From Polyangium fumosum (GTDB taxonomy: Bacteria; Myxococcota_A; Polyangia; Polyangiales; Polyangiaceae): a stretch of DNA of 64,000 nucleotides. The notes below the pieces were generated by a model. The model searched no databases. It was not told the origin of the DNA and saw only the letters and a program-made list of their open reading frames with translations. The stretch lies in contig NZ_SSMQ01000034.1 of NCBI RefSeq assembly GCF_005144585.1, positions 1 through 64,000 on the forward strand, written 5' to 3'. The position numbers were made by a program, and so were the translations under genes. Positions 25,115-32,040 of this stretch are shown here, in pieces (within the stretch, counting starts at the first letter, position 1; each line of letters opens with the position of its first letter).

Positions 25115-25367
25115 CGTGCCGCCCTTCGCGCTGCTCCTGGTCACCATCGCAGACGCATTCTATGGCGGAGCGTCGAAAAACCCTAGCGCGACGAACATGC
25201 CTCCTCGCGTGAGCGAGACCTCCTCGCGGGGTTTGGGGCCACAGCTCGGCGGACCCGCGCCAAGCCCCGCGCACCGAAGGACGTGGTGCCGCCGCTTCGA
25301 GCGTGCTCTTCTTGACGTCCCGCACGAAAGGAGCTCGGCACGACGATTGCGTCGAGCGCGTCGCCCC

Positions 25368-25646
25368 ATGGTGGCCGAACAACTCGCACGCCGCGACATC
25401 CAGGACCGGCGGGTGCTCGATGCGATGCGTCGCGTCCCGCGGCACGCCTTCGTGCCTGCCGCGCGGCTCGCGCCGCTCGGGTACGGAAACATCCGGGTGG
25501 TCACGGGAGATGGCACCAGGACGGCTGGGCCCGGGCGGACGGCTGGAAAACTTCATTCGTCCCGCTTGACGATTGGGGCGTCACGCGGACGAGCCGTGTT
25601 ACGCCCCAAACCCCATACCGTTCCGCCCTCCGCCCTGGTACGATGA
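25368..25646 (+). pseudogene. pcm: Truncated protein-L-isoaspartate O-methyltransferase, copy A
   Basis: The first 33 residues, MVAEQLARRDIQDRRVLDAM followed by RRVPRHAFVPAAR, match the N-terminal helices of Pcm (MVxxQLxxRGIxDxxVLxAMxxVPRHxFVP). Similarity stops near GYGNIRVVTGDGT; the SAM-binding Rossmann fold (VLEIGTGSGYQ-type motif) is absent and the frame runs on as unrelated residues to a stop at 25646. Pcm normally has about 210 residues, so this is a relic that cannot methylate. The same truncation point occurs in the copy at 27881, so truncation preceded the duplication. Confidence 0.75.
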
Positions 25647-25650
25647 ACGC

Positions 25651-25881
25651 ATGGCGCATCCGTACCGCATGAGGCCCACGGTGCCCCCCGAAGGCTCGTC
25701 CGACGACGAACGGCTCTCCGGTCCGACGCTCGCGTTCGGTTTGTTTTGCGTCATCTCGGGCCTCGCGCTCGCGGGCGCGTCGCGCCCGGGCGCGCTGCTC
25801 CTCGCGGGCGGCGCGGGGACTGTCGCGATCGCGGCGCGCCGAACGCCGCGCGGAGGGGCCTACCCGCGTGACAAGGATTGA
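25651..25881 (+). CDS. Small membrane protein
   Basis: 76 aa. The start MAHPYRMRPTVPPEG is followed by a hydrophobic region in two parts (LAFGLFCVISGLALAG and GALLLAGGAGTVAIAA) consistent with two short membrane helices, and a basic tail. It overlaps the alkB start by 14 nt, so the two are probably coupled. TACGAT ends 6 nt before the ATG and there is no Shine-Dalgarno, as for a leaderless mRNA; this hexamer is kept in copy B. The coding part is nearly unchanged between the two copies. Function unknown. Confidence 0.65.
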   Translation: MAHPYRMRPTVPPEGSSDDERLSGPTLAFGLFCVISGLALAGASRPGALLLAGGAGTVAIAARRTPRGGAYPRDKD

Positions 25882-26458
25882 GCTCCAGCGCGGGGGATTC
25901 CTCCTCTTCCACGACCCGTTTCTCACGCGGAGCGAGGCCGACGCCTCGTTTCCCGCGCTGCTCGCGGAGGTCCCGTTTCAGCAGCAAACGATCCGGCTCT
26001 TCGGCAAATCGATCTTGCAGCCGCGCCTCTCGGCCTGGCACGGGGATGCGGGCGCCTCGTACACGTATTCGGGCCTGTCGCTCACGCCGAACCCGTGGAC
26101 GCCGGCGCTCTCGGCGCTGCGCGCGCGGGTCGAGGCGGCGGCCGGCTGCACGTTCAACAGCGTGCTCGTGAACCACTACAGGGACGGCGACGATTCGATG
26201 GGCAAACACGCCGACGACGAGCCCGAGCTCGGGGAAAACCCGGTGATCGCGTCCCTCTCGCTCGGGGCGCGAAGGAGGTTCGTCCTGGAACCGAAGCACA
26301 AGGGCGGGGAGAAGGTGACGCTCGAGCTCGGCGAGGGGAATCTGCTCGTGATGGCGGGGACGACGCAGCACCATTATCGGCACGGGGTGCCGAAGCAGGC
26401 CGGGCGGGGGGCGAGGATGAATTTGACGTTTCGCCGGATTTTGGGGTCAGGGGGCTGA
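25868..26458 (+). CDS. alkB: AlkB-family Fe(II)/2-oxoglutarate dioxygenase (DNA/RNA repair)
   Basis: 196 aa. GTG 25868 with GGAGGGG about 9 nt upstream. Resembles the ALKBH2/3-type branch: PRLSAWHGDAGASYTYSGL, TFNSVLVNHYRDGDDSMGKH with the HxD metal ligands in MGKHADDE, FVLEPK, LLVMAGTTQHHYRHGVPK with the distal His, and ARMNLTFR with the Arg pair binding 2-oxoglutarate. It would remove alkyl lesions such as 1-methyladenine by oxidative demethylation. Full length and apparently functional, unlike the broken copy at 28.3 kb. It overlaps the convergent DUF6968-like gene by 12 nt. Confidence 0.92.
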   Translation: MTRIELQRGGFLLFHDPFLTRSEADASFPALLAEVPFQQQTIRLFGKSILQPRLSAWHGDAGASYTYSGLSLTPNPWTPALSALRARVEAAAGCTFNSVLVNHYRDGDDSMGKHADDEPELGENPVIASLSLGARRRFVLEPKHKGGEKVTLELGEGNLLVMAGTTQHHYRHGVPKQAGRGARMNLTFRRILGSGG

Positions 26459-27151
26459 GAAATCAGGCATGTCGGGGTCGCTGGTCGGTTCCATCGCGTA
26501 GGCTCGGCCCACCTTGTAGGGCAAGAACGTGGGCCCCAAGAATTCATCGGAAAGCGGCGCCTCCCAACCTTCCGGAATCATGGCTTCGTAGGTCGCGCGC
26601 GCCAAGGCGAGGCCGTCCAGAAGCGCCTCGATGAAGTCGTCGCCCGTGCCATGACGAACAGGCTCGTCGAGGGTCGAACCAAGGAGGAACGCGCATTTCC
26701 ACGTTCCGTCATCGACGCGAACCGGCTTGTACACCGTGAGGGCCAATGCTCGTGCGCGACCCGCCTCATCGGGGCAGCCGAGCGTGCCGACCGCGAGAGG
26801 TTCGAGCCCCCCGGGATTCGCCTCGCATGGGGGGACGGTGGGGGGCTGGTACGCCTCAGGTTTCTCGGCGAAACGCGGCAGGCCCGCATGAACCATCCCT
26901 TGCCAGCTCGACCGTTCCTCCGTGGGATGCTCGATGTAGCTGCGGGCGACCGTGAGGCAGCTCAGGAGCGCCTGAATGGCGTCGACGCCCCTCACGTGGA
27001 GGGTCCTCTGGTTGGGCGGCGGGCTGAACTGGAATCCGCACTCCCAGTCATCCTGATCCGTCTTGCGTGGGGTAAATACCGTCAGGGTGACGTCCTTCAC
27101 GACGCCGTTATCGCTGCGGTACTGGAGCACGCGTGTGGTGAGAACGGCCAT
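26447..27151 (-). CDS. DUF6968-like protein with two repeated domains
   Basis: 234 aa. GAGG about 5 nt before the ATG. Two similar units are seen: residues 5-75 (LTVFTPRKTDQDDWECGFQF ... RGVDAIQALLSCLTVARSYI) and 135-195 (LTVYKPVRVDDGTWKCAFLL ... TGDDFIEALLDGLALARATY). Each has the strand-W-x-C then helix pattern of DUF6968-type domains, proteins often found near toxin systems, where an immunity role is suspected but not shown. It lies 7 nt after the read-through end of the Cys-rich secreted-protein gene, so the two probably form an operon. A degenerate copy of its N-terminal half sits at 28.85-29.05 kb. Confidence 0.8.
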   Translation of the reverse strand: MAVLTTRVLQYRSDNGVVKDVTLTVFTPRKTDQDDWECGFQFSPPPNQRTLHVRGVDAIQALLSCLTVARSYIEHPTEERSSWQGMVHAGLPRFAEKPEAYQPPTVPPCEANPGGLEPLAVGTLGCPDEAGRARALALTVYKPVRVDDGTWKCAFLLGSTLDEPVRHGTGDDFIEALLDGLALARATYEAMIPEGWEAPLSDEFLGPTFLPYKVGRAYAMEPTSDPDMPDFSAP

Positions 27152-27158
27152 CTCGTCC

Positions 27159-27239
27159 TCAATCTGCGTAGGGGATTTTCTTCATGCAATCGCCGAGCTT
27201 TTGGCTGCACTCCGCGTAGCATTGGCGTCCAAGTTTTCC
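27159..27239 (-). other. In-frame coding extension after the TGA of the Cys-rich secreted protein
   Basis: Directly after TGA 27240-27242 the same frame continues for 26 codons (GKLGRQCYAECSQKLGDCMK ...) to a second TGA at 27159-27161. It supplies three Cys that mirror the three in the annotated end, giving CX6CX3C before and CX3CX6C after. With this extension the gap to the next gene is 7 nt. This looks like original coding sequence cut by a recent nonsense change, or read-through. Confidence 0.7.
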
Positions 27240-27488
27240 TCACGTACACCAGTCGCGGCACGCCTCGAACAACGTCTCGCATTCCTGCACACGGCGCTCG
27301 CGCTCCTCCTCGCTGATCCCTCCCGTCGGCACCGCGGCTCCCTCATGAAGCTCCGGTTCTCTTGGGTCAGCCCCCCTCGACGTCAACGACGAGTCAGGTG
27401 ATGCCAGTCGGACGTCACCCACGCCTGACGCCATACCGAGCGACCCGTACAGAACAAGCGCCCCGAGCCCCAAGATCAGCTTCGCCAT
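27240..27488 (-). CDS. Secreted Cys-rich protein, truncated by an in-frame TGA
   Basis: 82 aa. GGAGGA about 6 nt before ATG 27488. A signal peptide (MAKLILGLGALVLYGSLGMA) is followed by a disordered stretch with SPDSSLTSRGADPREPE and a helix, ISEEERERRVQECETLFEAC, ending CRDWCT before TGA. The frame continues past the stop with three more Cys and no further disruption, so the ancestral protein was probably 109 residues with a two-helix disulfide hairpin. The truncated form keeps three Cys, an odd number for a secreted protein. Upstream partner of the DUF6968-like gene; function unknown. Confidence 0.75.
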   Translation of the reverse strand: MAKLILGLGALVLYGSLGMASGVGDVRLASPDSSLTSRGADPREPELHEGAAVPTGGISEEERERRVQECETLFEACRDWCT

Positions 27489-27606
27489 GGTTGTCCTCCC
27501 TCGTGCGTCGTCCGAACACGCTGGAAGCACGTTAACATGAGCCGGCGACAAATGCCTAAATTCGCGCTCGCCGAGGACATGCTGCTCCCGCGAGCCCGCG
27601 GCAATC

Positions 27607-27669
27607 CCCCGGTCGATCACGACGCCGCCAAGGCCGCCTTCGAAAAACTCCTGCCGCGCCTCGCCCAGC
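27607..27669 (+). pseudogene. Fragment of the gene at 31216 (N-terminal part)
   Basis: About 62 bp match 31240-31302 with one or two mismatches, encoding PVDHDAAKAAFEKLLPRLAQ (residues 10-29 of the 274-aa protein at 31216). The match stops abruptly at 27669, where copy B of the duplicated segment begins. It is a rearrangement scar, not an expressed gene. Confidence 0.8.
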
Positions 27670-27880
27670 ATTCTATGGCGGAGCGCTGAAAAACCCTAGC
27701 GCGACGAACATGCCTCGCTCGCGTGAGCGAGACCTCTTCGCGGGATTTGGGGCGTCGCTCCGCGGGCCCGCGCGAAGCCCCGCGCCCCAAGGACGTGGTC
27801 GCGCCGCTTCGAGCGTGCTCTTCTGGACGTCCCGCACGAAAGGAGCTCGGCGCGACGATTGCGTCGAGCGCGTCTCCGTC

Positions 27881-28054
27881 ATGGATCCGAGGGAGCAAGC
27901 GCGTCACAACATCCAGGACCCGCGCGTGCTCGATGCAATGCGTCGCGTTTCGCGGCACGCCTTCGTGCTCGCCGCGCGGCTCGCGTCGCTCGGGTACGGA
28001 AACACCCGGGTGGTCACAAGAGATGGCACCCGAGGTGCGGTTTGTCCCGCTTGA
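27881..28054 (+). pseudogene. pcm: Truncated protein-L-isoaspartate O-methyltransferase, copy B
   Basis: 57 codons. MDPREQARHNIQDPRVLDAM then RRVSRHAFVLAAR parallels copy A and the Pcm N-terminus. It has lost more of the conserved residues (VPRH to VSRH, FVP to FVL) and stops after TRDGTRGAVCPA. The catalytic domain is absent, as in copy A. Confidence 0.75.
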
Positions 28055-28135
28055 CGATTGGGGCTCCACGCGGACGAGCCGCGTTACGCCCCAAACCCCA
28101 TACCCTTCCGCTCTCCGCGCTGGTACGATGGACGC

Positions 28136-28297
28136 ATGGCGCATCCGTACCGCATGAGGCCCACGGTGCCCCCCGAAGGCTCGCCCGAGGACGAACGGCT
28201 CTCCGGTCCGACGCTCGCGTTTGGTTTGTTTTGCGTCATCTCGGGCCTCGCGCTCGCCGATCTTGCAGCCGCGCCTATCGGCCTGGCACGGGGATGA
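28136..28297 (+). pseudogene. Truncated copy of the small membrane protein gene
   Basis: The first 41 residues match the gene at 25651 almost exactly (MAHPYRMRPTVPPEG ... ISGLALA). The 237-bp deletion then runs the frame into alkB sequence out of phase, ending ADLAAAPIGLARG. One hydrophobic segment is retained, so a short peptide could still be made. TACGAT upstream of the ATG is conserved. Confidence 0.7.
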
Positions 28298-28584
28298 GGG
28301 CGCCTCGTACACGTATTCGGGCCTGTCGCTCACGCCGAACCCCTGGACGCCAGCGCTCTCGGTGCTGCGCGCGCGGGTCGAGGCGGCGGCCGGCTGCACG
28401 TTCAACAGCGTGCTCGTGAACCACTCCAGAGACGGCGACGATTCGATGGGCAAACACGCCGACGACGAGCCCGAACTCGGCGAAAACCCGGTGATCGCGT
28501 CCCTGTCGCTCGGGGCGCGAAGGAAGTTCGTCCTGGAACCGAAGAAAAAGGGCGAGGAGAAGGTGACGCTCGAGCTCGGCGAGG
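28258..28584 (+). pseudogene. alkB: alkB fragment lacking both ends
   Basis: Corresponds to 26010-26339 of the intact gene, 329 bp without indels. It lacks about the first 48 residues and the C-terminal distal His and Arg. The metal-binding MGKHADDE is kept, but NHYRDG has become NHSRDG. The missing ligands make it catalytically dead. Confidence 0.85.
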
Positions 28585-28849
28585 GCCGATGGCAAGACCA
28601 CGGACGCGCGTCTCTACTGGCAACGGGGCGTTGCCAGCGGAGCCGTCAGCGCTGCGGCCTTGGCCTTGGGCGAAATCGTCGCAGGTCTTGCCACCGGCTG
28701 TTCGATGAACTGCGCGGAGCGCAGTTTATTGACCCCGAGTCCAGCGCTTGCGCAGGCCCCGGGTCCAGGGGCGGATAGCCCCGGTGGGGTCTGGGGCAAA
28801 GCCCCAGCGAAGCGCCTGCACGATGAGACCAATGCTCAGCTCCGGAATG
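28585..28849 (+). other. Unassigned insert with an open frame
   Basis: Sequence unique to locus B. One plus frame stays open through it and reads DGKTTDARLYWQRGVASGAV, then a hydrophobic stretch and CSMNCAERSLLTPSPALAQA. It has no start of its own and merges with the antisense of the DUF6968-like fragment. It may be the remnant of a larger protein, but no family is recognised. Two small hairpins lie at 28768-28807. Confidence 0.35.
28768..28807. repeat. Tandem GGGGC/GCCCC hairpins (REP-like)
   Basis: GGGGC-GGATA-GCCCC (28768-28782) is followed 8 nt later by CTGGGGC-AAA-GCCCCAG (28791-28807). Two compact hairpins in tandem resemble palindromic intergenic repeats. Only one instance was seen in the window. 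Confidence 0.35.
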
Positions 28850-29049
28850 AATGGGGGGACAGCGGGGGGGCTGGTACGCCGCAGGTTTCTCGGCGAATCG
28901 CGGAAGGCCCGCATGATCCATCCCTCGCCAGCTCGACCGTTCCTCCGTGGGATGCTCGATGTAGCTGCGGGCGACCGTGAGGCAGCTCAGGAGCGCCTGC
29001 ATGGCGTCGACACCCCTCACGTGGATGGTTCTCTGGTTGGGCGGCGGGC
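28850..29049 (-). pseudogene. Degenerate fragment of the DUF6968-like gene
   Basis: Matches 26827-27023 of the intact gene, encoding PPNQRTIHVRGVDAMQALLS, SYIEHPTEERSSW and GLPRFAEKPAAYQPP. A one-base insertion in the G-run near 28862-28868 breaks the frame on one side, and the start codon region and second domain are missing. Weak similarity may continue to about 29070. Confidence 0.8.
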
Positions 29050-29104
29050 AGCGAGCTTTGTACTGCACTCCGACTTGCGTGCGAAGCCGCCCTTCGCTCC
29101 CGCG

Positions 29105-29176
29105 AGCCTCCCGGCGGTCCCCTCCCGACCTCCTCCCGGCTCCCGCCAGCCTCCCGGCGGTCCCCCACCGACCTCC
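29105..29176. repeat. 29-bp direct repeat pair
   Basis: 29105-29133 and 29148-29176 share 27 of 29 positions (AGCCTCCCGGCGGTCCCC then CCGACCTCC). They lie in the 29.05-29.28 kb stretch, which otherwise holds no recognisable gene. Confidence 0.6.
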
Positions 29177-29285
29177 GGAGGTTGGCTTCATCCCAAATGT
29201 CGTCGCCTACCGACCGTCCCGCGGCTCGGCCGGGCCGTCCGGAGGTCACCCTTCGCCCGCCGCGGGCTCACGCCGCGAATCTGCC

Positions 29286-29315
29286 TTGACGGCGCAGGCC
29301 GTGCTCGGACAAGAT
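29286..29315 (+). promoter_or_regulatory. Candidate sigma-70-type promoter of the fluoride operon
   Basis: TTGACG (29286-29291), 18 nt, CAAGAT (29310-29315). The predicted start falls a few bases before the riboswitch, as expected for a 5' leader aptamer. Confidence 0.5.
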
Positions 29316-29325
29316 GCAGGTCGAT

Positions 29326-29380
29326 GGCGGTGGAGTCCGCCGATAACCGCGGTCCTTCGCGACCGCCAATGACTCCTACG
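29326..29380 (+). promoter_or_regulatory. Fluoride riboswitch (crcB motif) aptamer
   Basis: Matches the fluoride aptamer plan. First stem GGCGG (29326-29330) with CCGCC (29337-29341); then the conserved GATAAC; second stem GCGGTC with GACCGC; then AATGACTCCTACG. GGAGTC in the first loop (29332-29337) can pair with GACTCC (29371-29376) to form the pseudoknot. The downstream genes, DUF190 and a CLC-F-type antiporter, are classic fluoride-detoxification cargo, which independently supports the call. Confidence 0.9.
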
Positions 29381-29408
29381 ATGCATGCCCCCAGGGCACC
29401 GTAGGAGT
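29372..29408 (+). promoter_or_regulatory. Riboswitch expression platform (alternative hairpin)
   Basis: ACTCCTACG (29372-29380), the 3' strand of the aptamer, is a perfect complement of CGTAGGAGT (29400-29408). An inner GCCC-CCA-GGGC hairpin lies between. Formation of this stem would disrupt the aptamer. It is followed by TTGTCCGTCTTCTCC, a weak T-rich tract, so it may terminate transcription without fluoride. Confidence 0.75.
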
Positions 29409-29455
29409 TGTCCGTCTTCTCCTCCGGTGCCGCCAGAGCCAGGAGAGAGAACGAC

Positions 29456-29827
29456 GTGACGACCAGCCTTTCGGGAGCCCTGTCGGTGCTCCGCATCTAC
29501 CTTCCCCGCCGCGGCGTCAAGCACGGTCGAGGCTTCTGGGGGTGGCTCTTCGGTCGCTCGATCACGCATCACCTCGCAGCGGAGGCGCTGCGGTCGGGGG
29601 TGCTGTACGCGACCGTGACGCAGGGACACATGGGCTTCGTGTCGGGATCGACCGCGGTCGTCGCCGACCTCTCCGATACGCCGCCGGATACGTTGCCGAG
29701 CTGCGTCGAACTCATCGGGACGCCGGAAATCCTCGAGGCGTTCGTGACGGCGCACCGCGATGATCTTCGAGGCGCGGTCATCGTCCGCCTCGATGGAGTT
29801 GCCCTGTCCATCGGGGGGCCATCGTGA
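29456..29827 (+). CDS. DUF190 family protein (PII-like), fluoride operon
   Basis: 123 aa. GTG 29456 with AGGAGAG about 9 nt upstream; an earlier in-frame GTG overlaps the riboswitch platform and is less likely. The pattern LSVLRIYLPRRGVKHG, then AEALRSGVLYATVTQGHMGF and LPSCVELIGTPEILEAFVTA fits the ferredoxin-like, PII-related DUF190 fold. DUF190 genes often accompany fluoride channels or CLC-F genes and are thought to be regulatory, without a proven mechanism. Its stop overlaps the start of the antiporter gene (GTGA), so they are translationally coupled. Confidence 0.85.
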   Translation: MTTSLSGALSVLRIYLPRRGVKHGRGFWGWLFGRSITHHLAAEALRSGVLYATVTQGHMGFVSGSTAVVADLSDTPPDTLPSCVELIGTPEILEAFVTAHRDDLRGAVIVRLDGVALSIGGPS

Positions 29828-31158
29828 CGCGGCGGCGACTCTCGACGCTCGGGCAGTGGATTGTCCTTGGCGTGTGCGTCGGCGTGATATGCGGGGGCTC
29901 GTCCGCGCTCTTCCTTTCTCTCCTCGAAAAGGCCACGGAGGTCCGCACGGGTCACGAGGTCGTCGTGTATACCCTGCCCCTCGCGGGCCTCGCCATTGGA
30001 TGGATTTATGAGCGGTTCGGAAAGCCGATCAAGGCCGGGAGCAACCTCATCCTCGACACCCTTCACGACGAGGGCCCCGAGATCCCGCTGCGCATGGCTC
30101 CCATGGTGCTGATCGGCACGGTATTGACCCACCTCTTCGGCGGCAGCGCCGGACGGGAAGGAACGGCCGTGCAGATGGGGGCGAGCCTCGCCGATGCCGT
30201 AGCCCACCGCCTCCGCTTGACGCAAGAGCTGCGCAAACAGCTCCTCGCGGCCGGCGTCGCGGGCGGCTTCGGCTCGGTCTTTGGCACGCCGATCGCTGGC
30301 ACGGTGTTCGGGCTCGAGTTCATCACGCTCGGACGCATCGAATACACCGCCCTCGTCCCGGCGCTGGTCGCGTCCGTGGTCGGCGACATGACGACGCGCT
30401 GGCTCGGCATCGGGCATACCCACTACCCGGCTCCCCCGCACGTCCCCCTCTCCTCGCTGCTCCTGTTGAAATGGCTCCTGTTCGCCGTGGCCATCGCAGC
30501 TTCGACGACGGTCTTCATCGAGCTCACCCATTTCATCAAAAAGCAGATGGAGAAGCGGGTACCTCGGCTGCCCGTGCGGATGATGCTCGGCGGCGTCGTC
30601 GTGGTCGCGATGTGGCAGATCATCGGGACGAGCGACTATCTCGGCCTCGGGGTGCCGATGATCGTGCGTTCGTTCGAGGATCCGGGCCTGCCCGCGTATG
30701 CGTTCGCGGCCAAGCTCGTGTTCACGGCCGTGACGCTCGGGGCGGGTTTCCTGGGCGGCGAGGTGACGCCGCTCTTCTTCGTCGGCGCGGCGCTCGGGAA
30801 TGCGCTCTCCGGGCCGCTCGGGCTACCGCTCCCGCTCTGCGCGGGCGTCGGCCTCGCCGCCGTGTTCGCGAGCGCATCGAACACGCCGCTGGCGCTCTCG
30901 ATCATGGCGATGGAACTGCTCGGGCCCAATGTCTTCCCGCACGTGGCCGTGGTCTGCGTACTCTCGTATCTGCTGGCGGGGCATCGCAGCATCTACCCAG
31001 CGCAGCGGCTCTGGCAGCGCAAGGATGGGAGCCCGCTGCTCCGCTCCATCCCGTTACGGGACCTGGATGAAGCCGAACAGGGGCGCAAGTCTGGTTTTCA
31101 CGGCGGGACAGACCAGGGCGACGCCCAGCCCCCCAACACCGGAGATCCCCGCGCCTGA
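29824..31158 (+). CDS. CLC-type anion transporter, CLC-F (fluoride/proton) subtype
   Basis: 444 aa. Start GTG 29824. About ten membrane helices with CLC signatures: IKAGSNLILDTLHDEGPEIP where canonical chloride CLCs have GSGIP, GGSAGREGTAVQMGASLADA containing the gating Glu, AGFLGGEVTPLFFVGAALGN, and SASNTPLALSIMAMELLG. The replaced GSGIP region and GREGT are typical of the fluoride-exporting CLC-F branch. With the fluoride riboswitch upstream the role is export of fluoride from the cytosol coupled to proton entry. The C-terminal tail (residues about 405-444) is hydrophilic, with no CBS domain. Confidence 0.93.
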   Translation: MTRRRLSTLGQWIVLGVCVGVICGGSSALFLSLLEKATEVRTGHEVVVYTLPLAGLAIGWIYERFGKPIKAGSNLILDTLHDEGPEIPLRMAPMVLIGTVLTHLFGGSAGREGTAVQMGASLADAVAHRLRLTQELRKQLLAAGVAGGFGSVFGTPIAGTVFGLEFITLGRIEYTALVPALVASVVGDMTTRWLGIGHTHYPAPPHVPLSSLLLLKWLLFAVAIAASTTVFIELTHFIKKQMEKRVPRLPVRMMLGGVVVVAMWQIIGTSDYLGLGVPMIVRSFEDPGLPAYAFAAKLVFTAVTLGAGFLGGEVTPLFFVGAALGNALSGPLGLPLPLCAGVGLAAVFASASNTPLALSIMAMELLGPNVFPHVAVVCVLSYLLAGHRSIYPAQRLWQRKDGSPLLRSIPLRDLDEAEQGRKSGFHGGTDQGDAQPPNTGDPRA

Positions 31159-31215
31159 ACGACCGCTTTCTCGTAGAGGTTCCCGTCCGCGCATCCTCAT
31201 GGTAGCTTCCCCACC

Positions 31216-32040
31216 ATGAGTCCTCCCCAAAAGAAAAAACCCCCGGTCGACCACGACGCCGCCAAGGCCGCCTTCGAAAAACTCCTGCCGCGCCTCGCCC
31301 AGCTCCCCAAAGATGGCCTCCAATCACCGAACACCAGCGTCGACGCCGCGGCCATCGTCGCCCTCGGCATTGCCCGCGAGTTCTCGGCGCCCCAGGCGCG
31401 CGCGCGCTTCGAGCTCTTGCCCAAGGAGCTCTTCGATATCGCCGCCATAGACGACCTCGAAGCCGCGGCGCTCGCGGCCTGGTATACGGCCACGAGCCTC
31501 CTCTCCGCCAATGCCCAGGGCACGGAGGCCAAGCTCCCCGTCGAGCTCGTCGACGACGCCACCACGCTCAAGGCGCGGATGCTCAAGGTCGGCGAGTACC
31601 ACTTCGACCCGGCCACGCCCACCGGCCGCGAGATCGCCGATATCCGCGTCGGCACGGGGTACCGCGACCTCGCCCAGGACCTCGCCCGGCTCGCCAGGCT
31701 CTACCGCACCGAGAAGAACCAGCTCGAAAACGACAAAGTCCATTACAGCGTCGAGGACGCCACACGCGCGGACGAGCTGTCCCACCGGATCTTGGCGGAG
31801 CTCGCCACGTCCCGCAGCACGGAGCAAGCGCTCTGGACCGAGCGGGTCCAGCGCGCCTGGACGCTCCTCCTCGGACTTTATGGGGAGGCGACCACCACCG
31901 CGGCGTGGCTCTGGCGGAAAGAAAGCGGCGCGGCGCCGTATCCGTCGCTCGTCACGGCGGGGCGCGCGGCCCGCAAGGCGAGGTCCGAGGGCGCGGCCGA
32001 GGAGCCGCCGCCGGGCGGAGGCGAATCCACAGGCGGCTGA
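31216..32040 (+). CDS. Hypothetical helical protein
   Basis: 274 aa, soluble, no signal. Mostly helical with conserved-looking blocks PVDHDAAKAAFEKLLPRLAQ, FELLPKELFDIAAIDDLEAA, TLKARMLKVGEYHF, DIRVGTGYRDLAQDLARLAR and an acidic, Gly-rich tail. No family recognised. TAGCTT ends 7 nt before the ATG and no Shine-Dalgarno is visible, so the message may be leaderless. A 62-bp piece of its N-terminal coding region recurs at 27.6 kb, which shows that this gene or a paralogue took part in local rearrangement. Confidence 0.8.
   Translation: MSPPQKKKPPVDHDAAKAAFEKLLPRLAQLPKDGLQSPNTSVDAAAIVALGIAREFSAPQARARFELLPKELFDIAAIDDLEAAALAAWYTATSLLSANAQGTEAKLPVELVDDATTLKARMLKVGEYHFDPATPTGREIADIRVGTGYRDLAQDLARLARLYRTEKNQLENDKVHYSVEDATRADELSHRILAELATSRSTEQALWTERVQRAWTLLLGLYGEATTTAAWLWRKESGAAPYPSLVTAGRAARKARSEGAAEEPPPGGGESTGG

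What the first reader, a model, noticed from the sequence alone, without database searches (positions are those of the whole stretch)
27159..27488. In-frame TGA splits a secreted protein with a mirror-image cysteine pattern
The frame continues past TGA 27240-27242 for 26 codons to a second TGA. The six Cys then read CX6CX3C before the stop and CX3CX6C after it, a symmetric pattern expected of a disulfide-linked helical hairpin. With the extension the next gene starts 7 nt downstream, instead of 88. Chance would not conserve frame, Cys spacing and operon spacing together. Either a recent nonsense mutation (for example CGA to TGA), stop read-through, or a sequencing error; the truncated form has an odd Cys number.
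Basis: partly seen in the sequence, partly recalled or inferred. Interest (0 to 1): 0.7.

Follow-up and report, generated by a model that had tools for sequence, protein, structure and literature searches.

The report
Broken six-cysteine hairpin gene, partner intact
A small, apparently secreted hairpin protein of a soil myxobacterium seems to have been cut in half by a recent stop mutation, while its neighbour, which may be the gene that protects the cell from it, is still intact; the two belong to a wider group of linked genes that look like toxin and immunity pairs.

Summary
Every fact in the finding checks out, on the minus strand: an 82-codon ORF ends at TGA 27242-27240, the frame runs on for 26 codons to TGA 27161-27159, and the six cysteines read CX6CX3C / CX3CX6C. 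The three closest relatives are collinear and open, keep all six cysteines, and carry arginine codons where the window has TGA. The extension is therefore a lost part of the gene. A recent nonsense mutation is the best reading. Assembly error or leakage in this strain is not excluded; selenocysteine is unlikely. AlphaFold2 predicts two confident helices, with the stop at the end of the first. The larger result is the partner: all 43 strong matches to three cysteine-rich domain classes lie 5-93 nt upstream of a DUF6968 gene. Carriers are short exported-looking proteins, lipoprotein-like proteins and, once, an Rhs-core protein. Five other hairpin genes in the genus are broken or altered beside an open DUF6968 gene. 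That resembles polymorphic toxin-immunity modules that lost the toxin and kept immunity. Toxicity and immunity are inferred, not shown.

The parts
27243..27488 (-). ORF as it stands: 82 codons, signal-peptide-like N-terminus, linker, first helix with Cys70, Cys77, Cys81
   Evidence: signal peptide judged by eye, no predictor run
27240..27242 (-). in-frame TGA at codon 83, at the end of predicted helix 1, next to the turn; arginine codons in three relatives
27162..27239 (-). 26-codon extension (second helix, Cys90, Cys94, Cys101), conserved in frame
27159..27161 (-). second TGA, at the gene end of the relatives; 7 nt before the next ATG
27237..27311 (-). predicted helix 1 (residues 60-84 of the read-through form)
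27180..27227 (-). predicted helix 2 (residues 88-103)
26447..27151 (-). partner gene, 234 aa: one clear DUF6968 domain (PF22302) and a second, weaker copy; open, pairwise dN/dS 0.27 against G088
27603..29251 (.). decayed tandem duplicate just upstream of the hairpin gene, with scraps of the AlkB-like gene (named by eye), of DUF6968 and of the gene at 31216; no hairpin copy found in it

Best explanation
The window holds a recently inactivated member of a family of small, apparently exported proteins whose C-terminal domain is a two-helix hairpin, probably stapled by three nested disulfides (C1-C6, C2-C5, C3-C4, which would explain the mirror spacing). A TGA at the end of helix 1 removes helix 2 and with it the partner of every staple. 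Shown: frame, relatives, conservation, stop, linkage to DUF6968. Inferred: the hairpin is the effector (toxin-like) domain of a polymorphic toxin-type module and the downstream DUF6968 protein is its immunity protein, so that this strain has lost the toxin but kept immunity.
For: Open, collinear relatives with Arg at the stop. Low dN/dS after the stop and no faster change in the window lineage: 7 non-synonymous differences to outgroup G089:C7 for the window, 8 for G088. Two confident helices with the stop at the end of the first. Strong matches to the Cys domains lie 5-93 nt upstream of a DUF6968 gene on the same strand: class A 9 of 9 (E up to 1.1e-12, of 10 rows), class B 17 of 17 (E up to 9.7e-11, of 41 rows), class C 17 of 17 (E up to 1.3e-18, of 21 rows). 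Carriers vary: short exported-looking proteins, lipoprotein-like 226-247 aa proteins, and in G057 an Rhs core (TIGR03696, 70.7 bits, cut-off 32.5) followed by a class C domain split between frames. Five other hairpin genes are broken or altered beside a DUF6968 match without stops: G085:C1:8127811 (two in-frame stops, in a 2-contig genome), G088:C10 (stop right after the aligned start), G088:C198 (indels and a stop), G085:C1:4954944 (stop ahead of the domain), G000:C22 (two indels, one Cys lost). In the four of these compared with an intact counterpart, pairwise DUF6968 dN/dS is 0.08-0.24.
Against: Neither toxicity nor immunity was tested. DUF6968 has no signal peptide by eye, so it should be cytosolic, whereas disulfide hairpins fit the periplasm or outside; an awkward match for simple immunity. 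Only one Rhs carrier was seen. Of 20 DUF6968 loci examined outside the genus (of 21 matches), 5 have a class A or C domain upstream and 15 do not; four of the 15 sit beside an unrelated small gene. The pairwise dN/dS values average over both lineages and much of the time before the breaks, so they do not prove that DUF6968 stayed under selection afterwards. No read data, so the stop could be an assembly error. dN/dS on 26 codons is noisy.
Confidence: 0.55

Rival explanations
1. Assembly or sequencing error: the gene is intact in the living strain.
For: One base in one assembly of 201 contigs; the extension shows no decay; no reads or second genome of the species were available.
Against: The changed codon is not in a homopolymer run by eye; other members of the wider family are broken too, one in a 2-contig genome, so a true mutation is not improbable here.
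Confidence: 0.15
2. The TGA is read through at some level in this strain, so both short and long proteins are made.
For: Frame, Cys and low dN/dS after the stop are preserved.
Against: The three closest relatives have sense codons, so read-through is not a conserved feature; the next base is G, not a classic leaky context (recalled); the RNA after the stop is no more stable than shuffles (z +0.5 to +0.85).
Confidence: 0.08
3. TGA encodes selenocysteine.
For: All 6 genus genomes have a tRNA-Sec match above the Rfam cut-off (71.3 bits in this genome; 5 of 14 control genomes are also above it).
Against: Relatives have Arg, not Cys, at the position; no downstream structure more stable than shuffles (no SECIS model or positive control was run).
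Confidence: 0.02
4. The truncated 82-aa protein is the functional product in this strain and the second helix was shed under selection.
For: Codons 57-82 have no non-synonymous difference to G088.
Against: That is equally expected if the whole gene was under selection until recently; three unpaired Cys in an exported protein are unfavourable (general knowledge).
Confidence: 0.06
5. The hairpin and DUF6968 are a non-toxic pair (for example an exported binding protein with a dedicated cytosolic factor), so the loss is not loss of a toxin. This can be true together with a nonsense mutation.
For: No activity is known; DUF6968 looks cytosolic by eye; no paper in the library names DUF6968 or PF22302; 15 of 20 loci outside the genus lack the Cys domains.
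Against: Carrier swapping, one Rhs core, a cluster of pairs (G000:C164) and repeated loss of the upstream gene beside an open downstream gene are typical of toxin-immunity loci.
Confidence: 0.35

Closest known systems
Polymorphic toxin-immunity modules (Rhs, CDI, SitA/SitI)
   Same: Variable carriers in front of shared C-terminal domains, a small partner gene immediately downstream, clustered and solitary partner genes
   Different: No known toxin or immunity domain is recognised; the effector-like domain is a tiny Cys hairpin; activity untested
SitA lipoprotein toxins of Myxococcus (PMC5562445, PMC8546572; passages seen)
   Same: Also myxobacterial; lipoprotein-like carriers with a downstream partner gene in some DUF6968 loci
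   Different: Per the passages, SitA families have ~375-aa escort domains and nuclease C-termini; here whole proteins are 226-247 aa (lipoprotein-like) or ~109 aa (window type)
Plant alpha-hairpinins (vicilin-buried peptide-10, luffin P1)
   Same: CX3C...CX3C; the family profile aligns both CX3C pairs in register (E 0.013 and 0.057)
   Different: Plant peptides with four Cys (abstract of PMC11591084); here six Cys with an extra outer pair, bacterial; similarity is weak, Cys-driven and probably convergent
Orphan immunity genes after toxin loss
   Same: Upstream effector-like gene broken, downstream partner open
   Different: Here immunity function is only inferred

Membership tests
Disrupted gene (nonsense allele) | collinear homologues have a sense codon at the stop | tested here: met
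   Arg codons in G088:C2, G089:C7, G089:C5
Disrupted gene (nonsense allele) | stop confirmed in reads or another isolate | not testable with these tools
   no reads; one genome per species held
Selenoprotein | Cys at the position in relatives | tested here: not met
   Arg in the three closest relatives; no Cys at that column in any of the six rows
Selenoprotein | SECIS-type stem-loop downstream | tested here: inconclusive
   three stretches, z +0.5 to +0.85, no stable stem; no SECIS model and no positive control
Selenoprotein | Sec machinery in the genome | tested here: met
   tRNA-Sec above cut-off in 6 of 6 genomes; SelA and SelB not searched
Alpha-hairpinin | two helices, each with a CX3C | tested here: met
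   relative orientation of the helices not inspected
Alpha-hairpinin | four Cys, significant sequence similarity to the family | tested here: not met
   six Cys; best PDB match E 0.013
Polymorphic toxin-immunity module | same C-terminal domain behind different export carriers | tested here: met
   class C: lipoprotein-like, short exported-looking, Rhs core; class B: lipoprotein-like and short exported-looking; class A: short exported-looking plus one unresolved carrier in G433
Polymorphic toxin-immunity module | dedicated partner gene directly downstream | tested here: met
   43 of 43 strong matches, 5-93 nt
Polymorphic toxin-immunity module | toxicity neutralised by the partner | not testable with these tools
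   needs an expression assay
SitA lipoprotein toxins | SitA escort domain | tested here: inconclusive
   no NCBIfam family above cut-off in four lipoprotein-like proteins; whether the library holds a SitA model was not checked, and no SitA sequence was compared

The most novel reading that the evidence does not exclude
Myxobacteria carry an undescribed class of polymorphic toxins whose effector is a miniature, mirror-symmetric, disulfide-stapled helical hairpin in several spacing classes. They are exported as short secreted proteins, lipoproteins or Rhs tips, each neutralised by a DUF6968 immunity protein. The genus repeatedly disarms the hairpin while keeping DUF6968, and the window catches one such event at an early stage.
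Probability: 0.4. Interest if true: 0.6.

Novelty: new member of a known kind. Interest (0 to 1): 0.42.

Why it matters
The stop itself is an ordinary mutation. It matters as a pointer to a hairpin-plus-DUF6968 gene pair that occurs in many copies in one myxobacterial genus and in a few distant relatives. Neither DUF6968 nor PF22302 is named in the paper library searched. The linkage gives DUF6968 a first testable function (immunity). Because the break looks fresh and the partner is open, it is a clean case for studying how effector genes are lost while a partner is retained.

Tried and rejected
Selenocysteine: tRNA-Sec is present, but relatives have Arg and nothing unusually structured follows the stop; judged unlikely. 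A formate dehydrogenase search, meant as a SECIS control, gave 10 matches, none over the cut-off; the one with an internal TGA was looked at once, led nowhere and was dropped.

Conserved read-through: rejected because the relatives have sense codons.

Family libraries: Pfam had none for the 82-aa window form and, for relatives, only one chance-level hit (SCAN, E 0.13); NCBIfam had none for four relatives; PADLOC had none for four proteins (G088 hairpin, window DUF6968 protein, two lipoprotein-like proteins). Lipoprotein-like proteins: nothing over a cut-off. Foldseek against PDB: best E 1.2. The VIA second look topped at Z 5.8, rmsd 4.4, 57 aligned, which for a helical hairpin may mean only a common arrangement. 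None of this shows that the fold is new.

AlphaFold2 of the DUF6968 protein with two sequences was too poor to use (mean pLDDT 45.9); no fold search was run on it.

Rows with E above 1e-4 were ignored as chance-level. Left out of the linkage count: 24 of 41 rows (E 2.8e-5 and above) and 4 of 21 rows (E 1e-5 and above); these weak rows were not tested for linkage. The one weak row (G443) was tested and has no DUF6968 match. The searches scored at most 17 candidates a genome, so further members may be missed. The classes were collected beside DUF6968, so linkage is partly built in; the informative part is that no strong match away from DUF6968 turned up. One mirror hit beside a DUF6968 gene (G086:C20:711290) is a low-complexity repeat and is not counted as a hairpin.

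Papers: searches. PMC5562445 and PMC8546572: search passages only. All others: search listings with abstract starts only.

Full report
Observation. The gene lies on the minus strand. ATG 27488 opens an 82-codon ORF that ends at TGA 27242-27240; the same frame continues for 26 codons to TGA 27161-27159. The six cysteines (70, 77, 81, 90, 94, 101) give CX6CX3C and CX3CX6C. The next gene starts at 27151, 7 nt after the second stop or 88 nt after the first.

Homologues. The window's genome is G000 (201 contigs). Among 108 family genomes the matches below E 1e-4 are all in the same genus. The five best besides the window are G088:C2 83% identity, G089:C7 71%, G089:C5 63%, G085:C1 57% and G089:C11 56%, none with a stop; two more (G088:C215, G087:C94) share the N-terminus but have another Cys spacing. 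A profile search of 183 order genomes found the family in 5, all of this genus. In the alignment of six, all six Cys are invariant and the second half is conserved. At the stop the three closest relatives have AGA, AGG and CGA, all arginine.

Age of the stop. Against G088 the 26 post-stop codons have 7 synonymous and 5 non-synonymous differences (dN/dS 0.11); codons 57-82 have 4 and 0; codons 1-56 have dN/dS 0.38. Against outgroup G089:C7 the window's extension has 7 non-synonymous differences and G088's has 8, so there is no sign of relaxed evolution in the window lineage. The stop is thus very recent, or an assembly error, or not fully effective. The numbers are small.

Recoding. All six genus genomes carry a tRNA-Sec match above the Rfam cut-off (5 of 14 control genomes do too), so selenocysteine had to be considered. 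The position is Arg in relatives, and the RNA downstream is no more stable than shuffles (z +0.5 to +0.85; no SECIS model or positive control). I judge it unlikely. Read-through as a conserved device is rejected, because relatives carry sense codons; low-level leakage in this strain cannot be excluded.

Structure. AlphaFold2 on the read-through form (Arg at the stop) with its G088 orthologue, two sequences in all, gives helices at residues 60-84 and 88-103, with block pLDDT 93-96 over residues 61-100; most of residues 1-50 is of low confidence. Codon 83 is at the end of helix 1, next to the turn. Nested disulfides C1-C6, C2-C5, C3-C4 would follow from the mirror spacing; this is inference. A profile of the family picks plant alpha-hairpinins as best PDB sequences (E 0.013 and 0.057), aligning both CX3C pairs in register. 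That is a likeness of design, not shown kinship.

Partner. The downstream protein (26447-27151, 234 aa) has a DUF6968 domain (PF22302, 75.4 bits) and a second, weaker copy. The six genus genomes have 60 DUF6968 matches, grouped by a script into 52 genes. Mirror-patterned six-Cys ORFs lie upstream of 22 of the 52, one of them a low-complexity artefact, so 21. Two spacing classes appear: A [6,3,n,3,6] and B [3,10,n,10,3]. A third class C has a CLDAA..GG..W..C...CW....WC signature. In 377 phylum genomes the strong matches are class A 9, class B 17 and class C 17; all 43 lie 5-93 nt upstream of a DUF6968 match on the same strand. Because the classes were collected beside DUF6968, the useful point is that no strong match was found elsewhere; the searches scored at most 17 candidates a genome, and weak rows of classes B and C were not tested for linkage.

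Carriers. Class A and B members include short proteins with signal-like starts; class B and C domains also sit at the end of 226-247 aa proteins with a lipobox-like start (all judged by eye). In G057 the ORF before DUF6968 contains an Rhs core (TIGR03696, 70.7 bits, cut-off 32.5), followed by a class C domain split between two frames. In G433, far from this genus, a class A domain [6,3,12,3,6] lies directly before DUF6968. Against this: of 20 DUF6968 loci examined outside the genus (of 21 matches), only 5 have a class A or C domain; four have an unrelated small gene instead.

Recurrent loss. Other hairpin genes are broken or altered beside a DUF6968 match without stops: G085:C1:8127811 has two in-frame stops in an otherwise near-identical match to intact G088:C145; G088:C10 has a stop right after the aligned start; G088:C198 has indels and a stop; G085:C1:4954944 has a stop just before the domain (no intact counterpart compared); G000:C22 has two indels and one Cys lost. 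Pairwise DUF6968 dN/dS in the four compared pairs is 0.24, 0.15, 0.12 and 0.08; for the window pair it is 0.27. These values average over both lineages and do not prove constraint after the break. G085 is a 2-contig assembly, so not all of the breaks can be artefacts of fragmented assemblies.

Local setting. Upstream of the gene, 27603-29251 is a decayed tandem duplicate that includes a 199-nt DUF6968 scrap and no hairpin gene (the genome has a single hairpin match). The locus has been rearranging.

Interpretation. Linkage, carrier exchange, an Rhs carrier, a cluster of pairs (G000:C164) and the one-sided loss of the upstream gene are what toxin-immunity modules look like; SitA/SitI of Myxococcus is the closest described case that I found (PMC5562445 and PMC8546572, passages seen). 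The weak point is topology: DUF6968 has no signal peptide by eye, while a disulfide hairpin suits an extracytoplasmic site. No activity has been measured. No paper in the library contains DUF6968 or PF22302; three papers hold both Polyangium and polymorphic toxin, none about this by its title or abstract start.

Verdict. As an event it is ordinary. The gene pair behind it is the interesting part: probably a new family of a known kind.

Noticed in passing
window 27603-29251: Decayed tandem duplicate of pieces of 25155-27024 and 31237-31303 (88-97% identical) with a truncated AlkB-like copy and a DUF6968 scrap; single-copy in the 8 kb of G088:C2 compared.
   Followed up: partly
window 29272-31187: Stretch without a BLAST match in the ten loci compared, G088 and G086 included; contains a chloride-channel-like ORF 29824-31158 (name by eye), possibly inserted.
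   Followed up: no
L074 (G000:C164:34500-44000): Cluster of five DUF6968 matches with four class C partners on both strands, like an expanding toxin-immunity locus.
   Followed up: partly
L075 (G000:C123): Class B hairpin whose usual lipoprotein-like N-terminal part is replaced by an array of short repeats.
   Followed up: no
L141 (G057:C1:693500-700000): Rhs-core ORF with its Cys-rich C-terminal domain split between two frames, DUF6968 open downstream.
   Followed up: partly
L135-L138: In four genomes of one other genus DUF6968-like genes (two of them at or below the cut-off) follow a conserved ~100-aa protein with a VEIEYCxGCRW motif; a different context for the domain.
   Followed up: no
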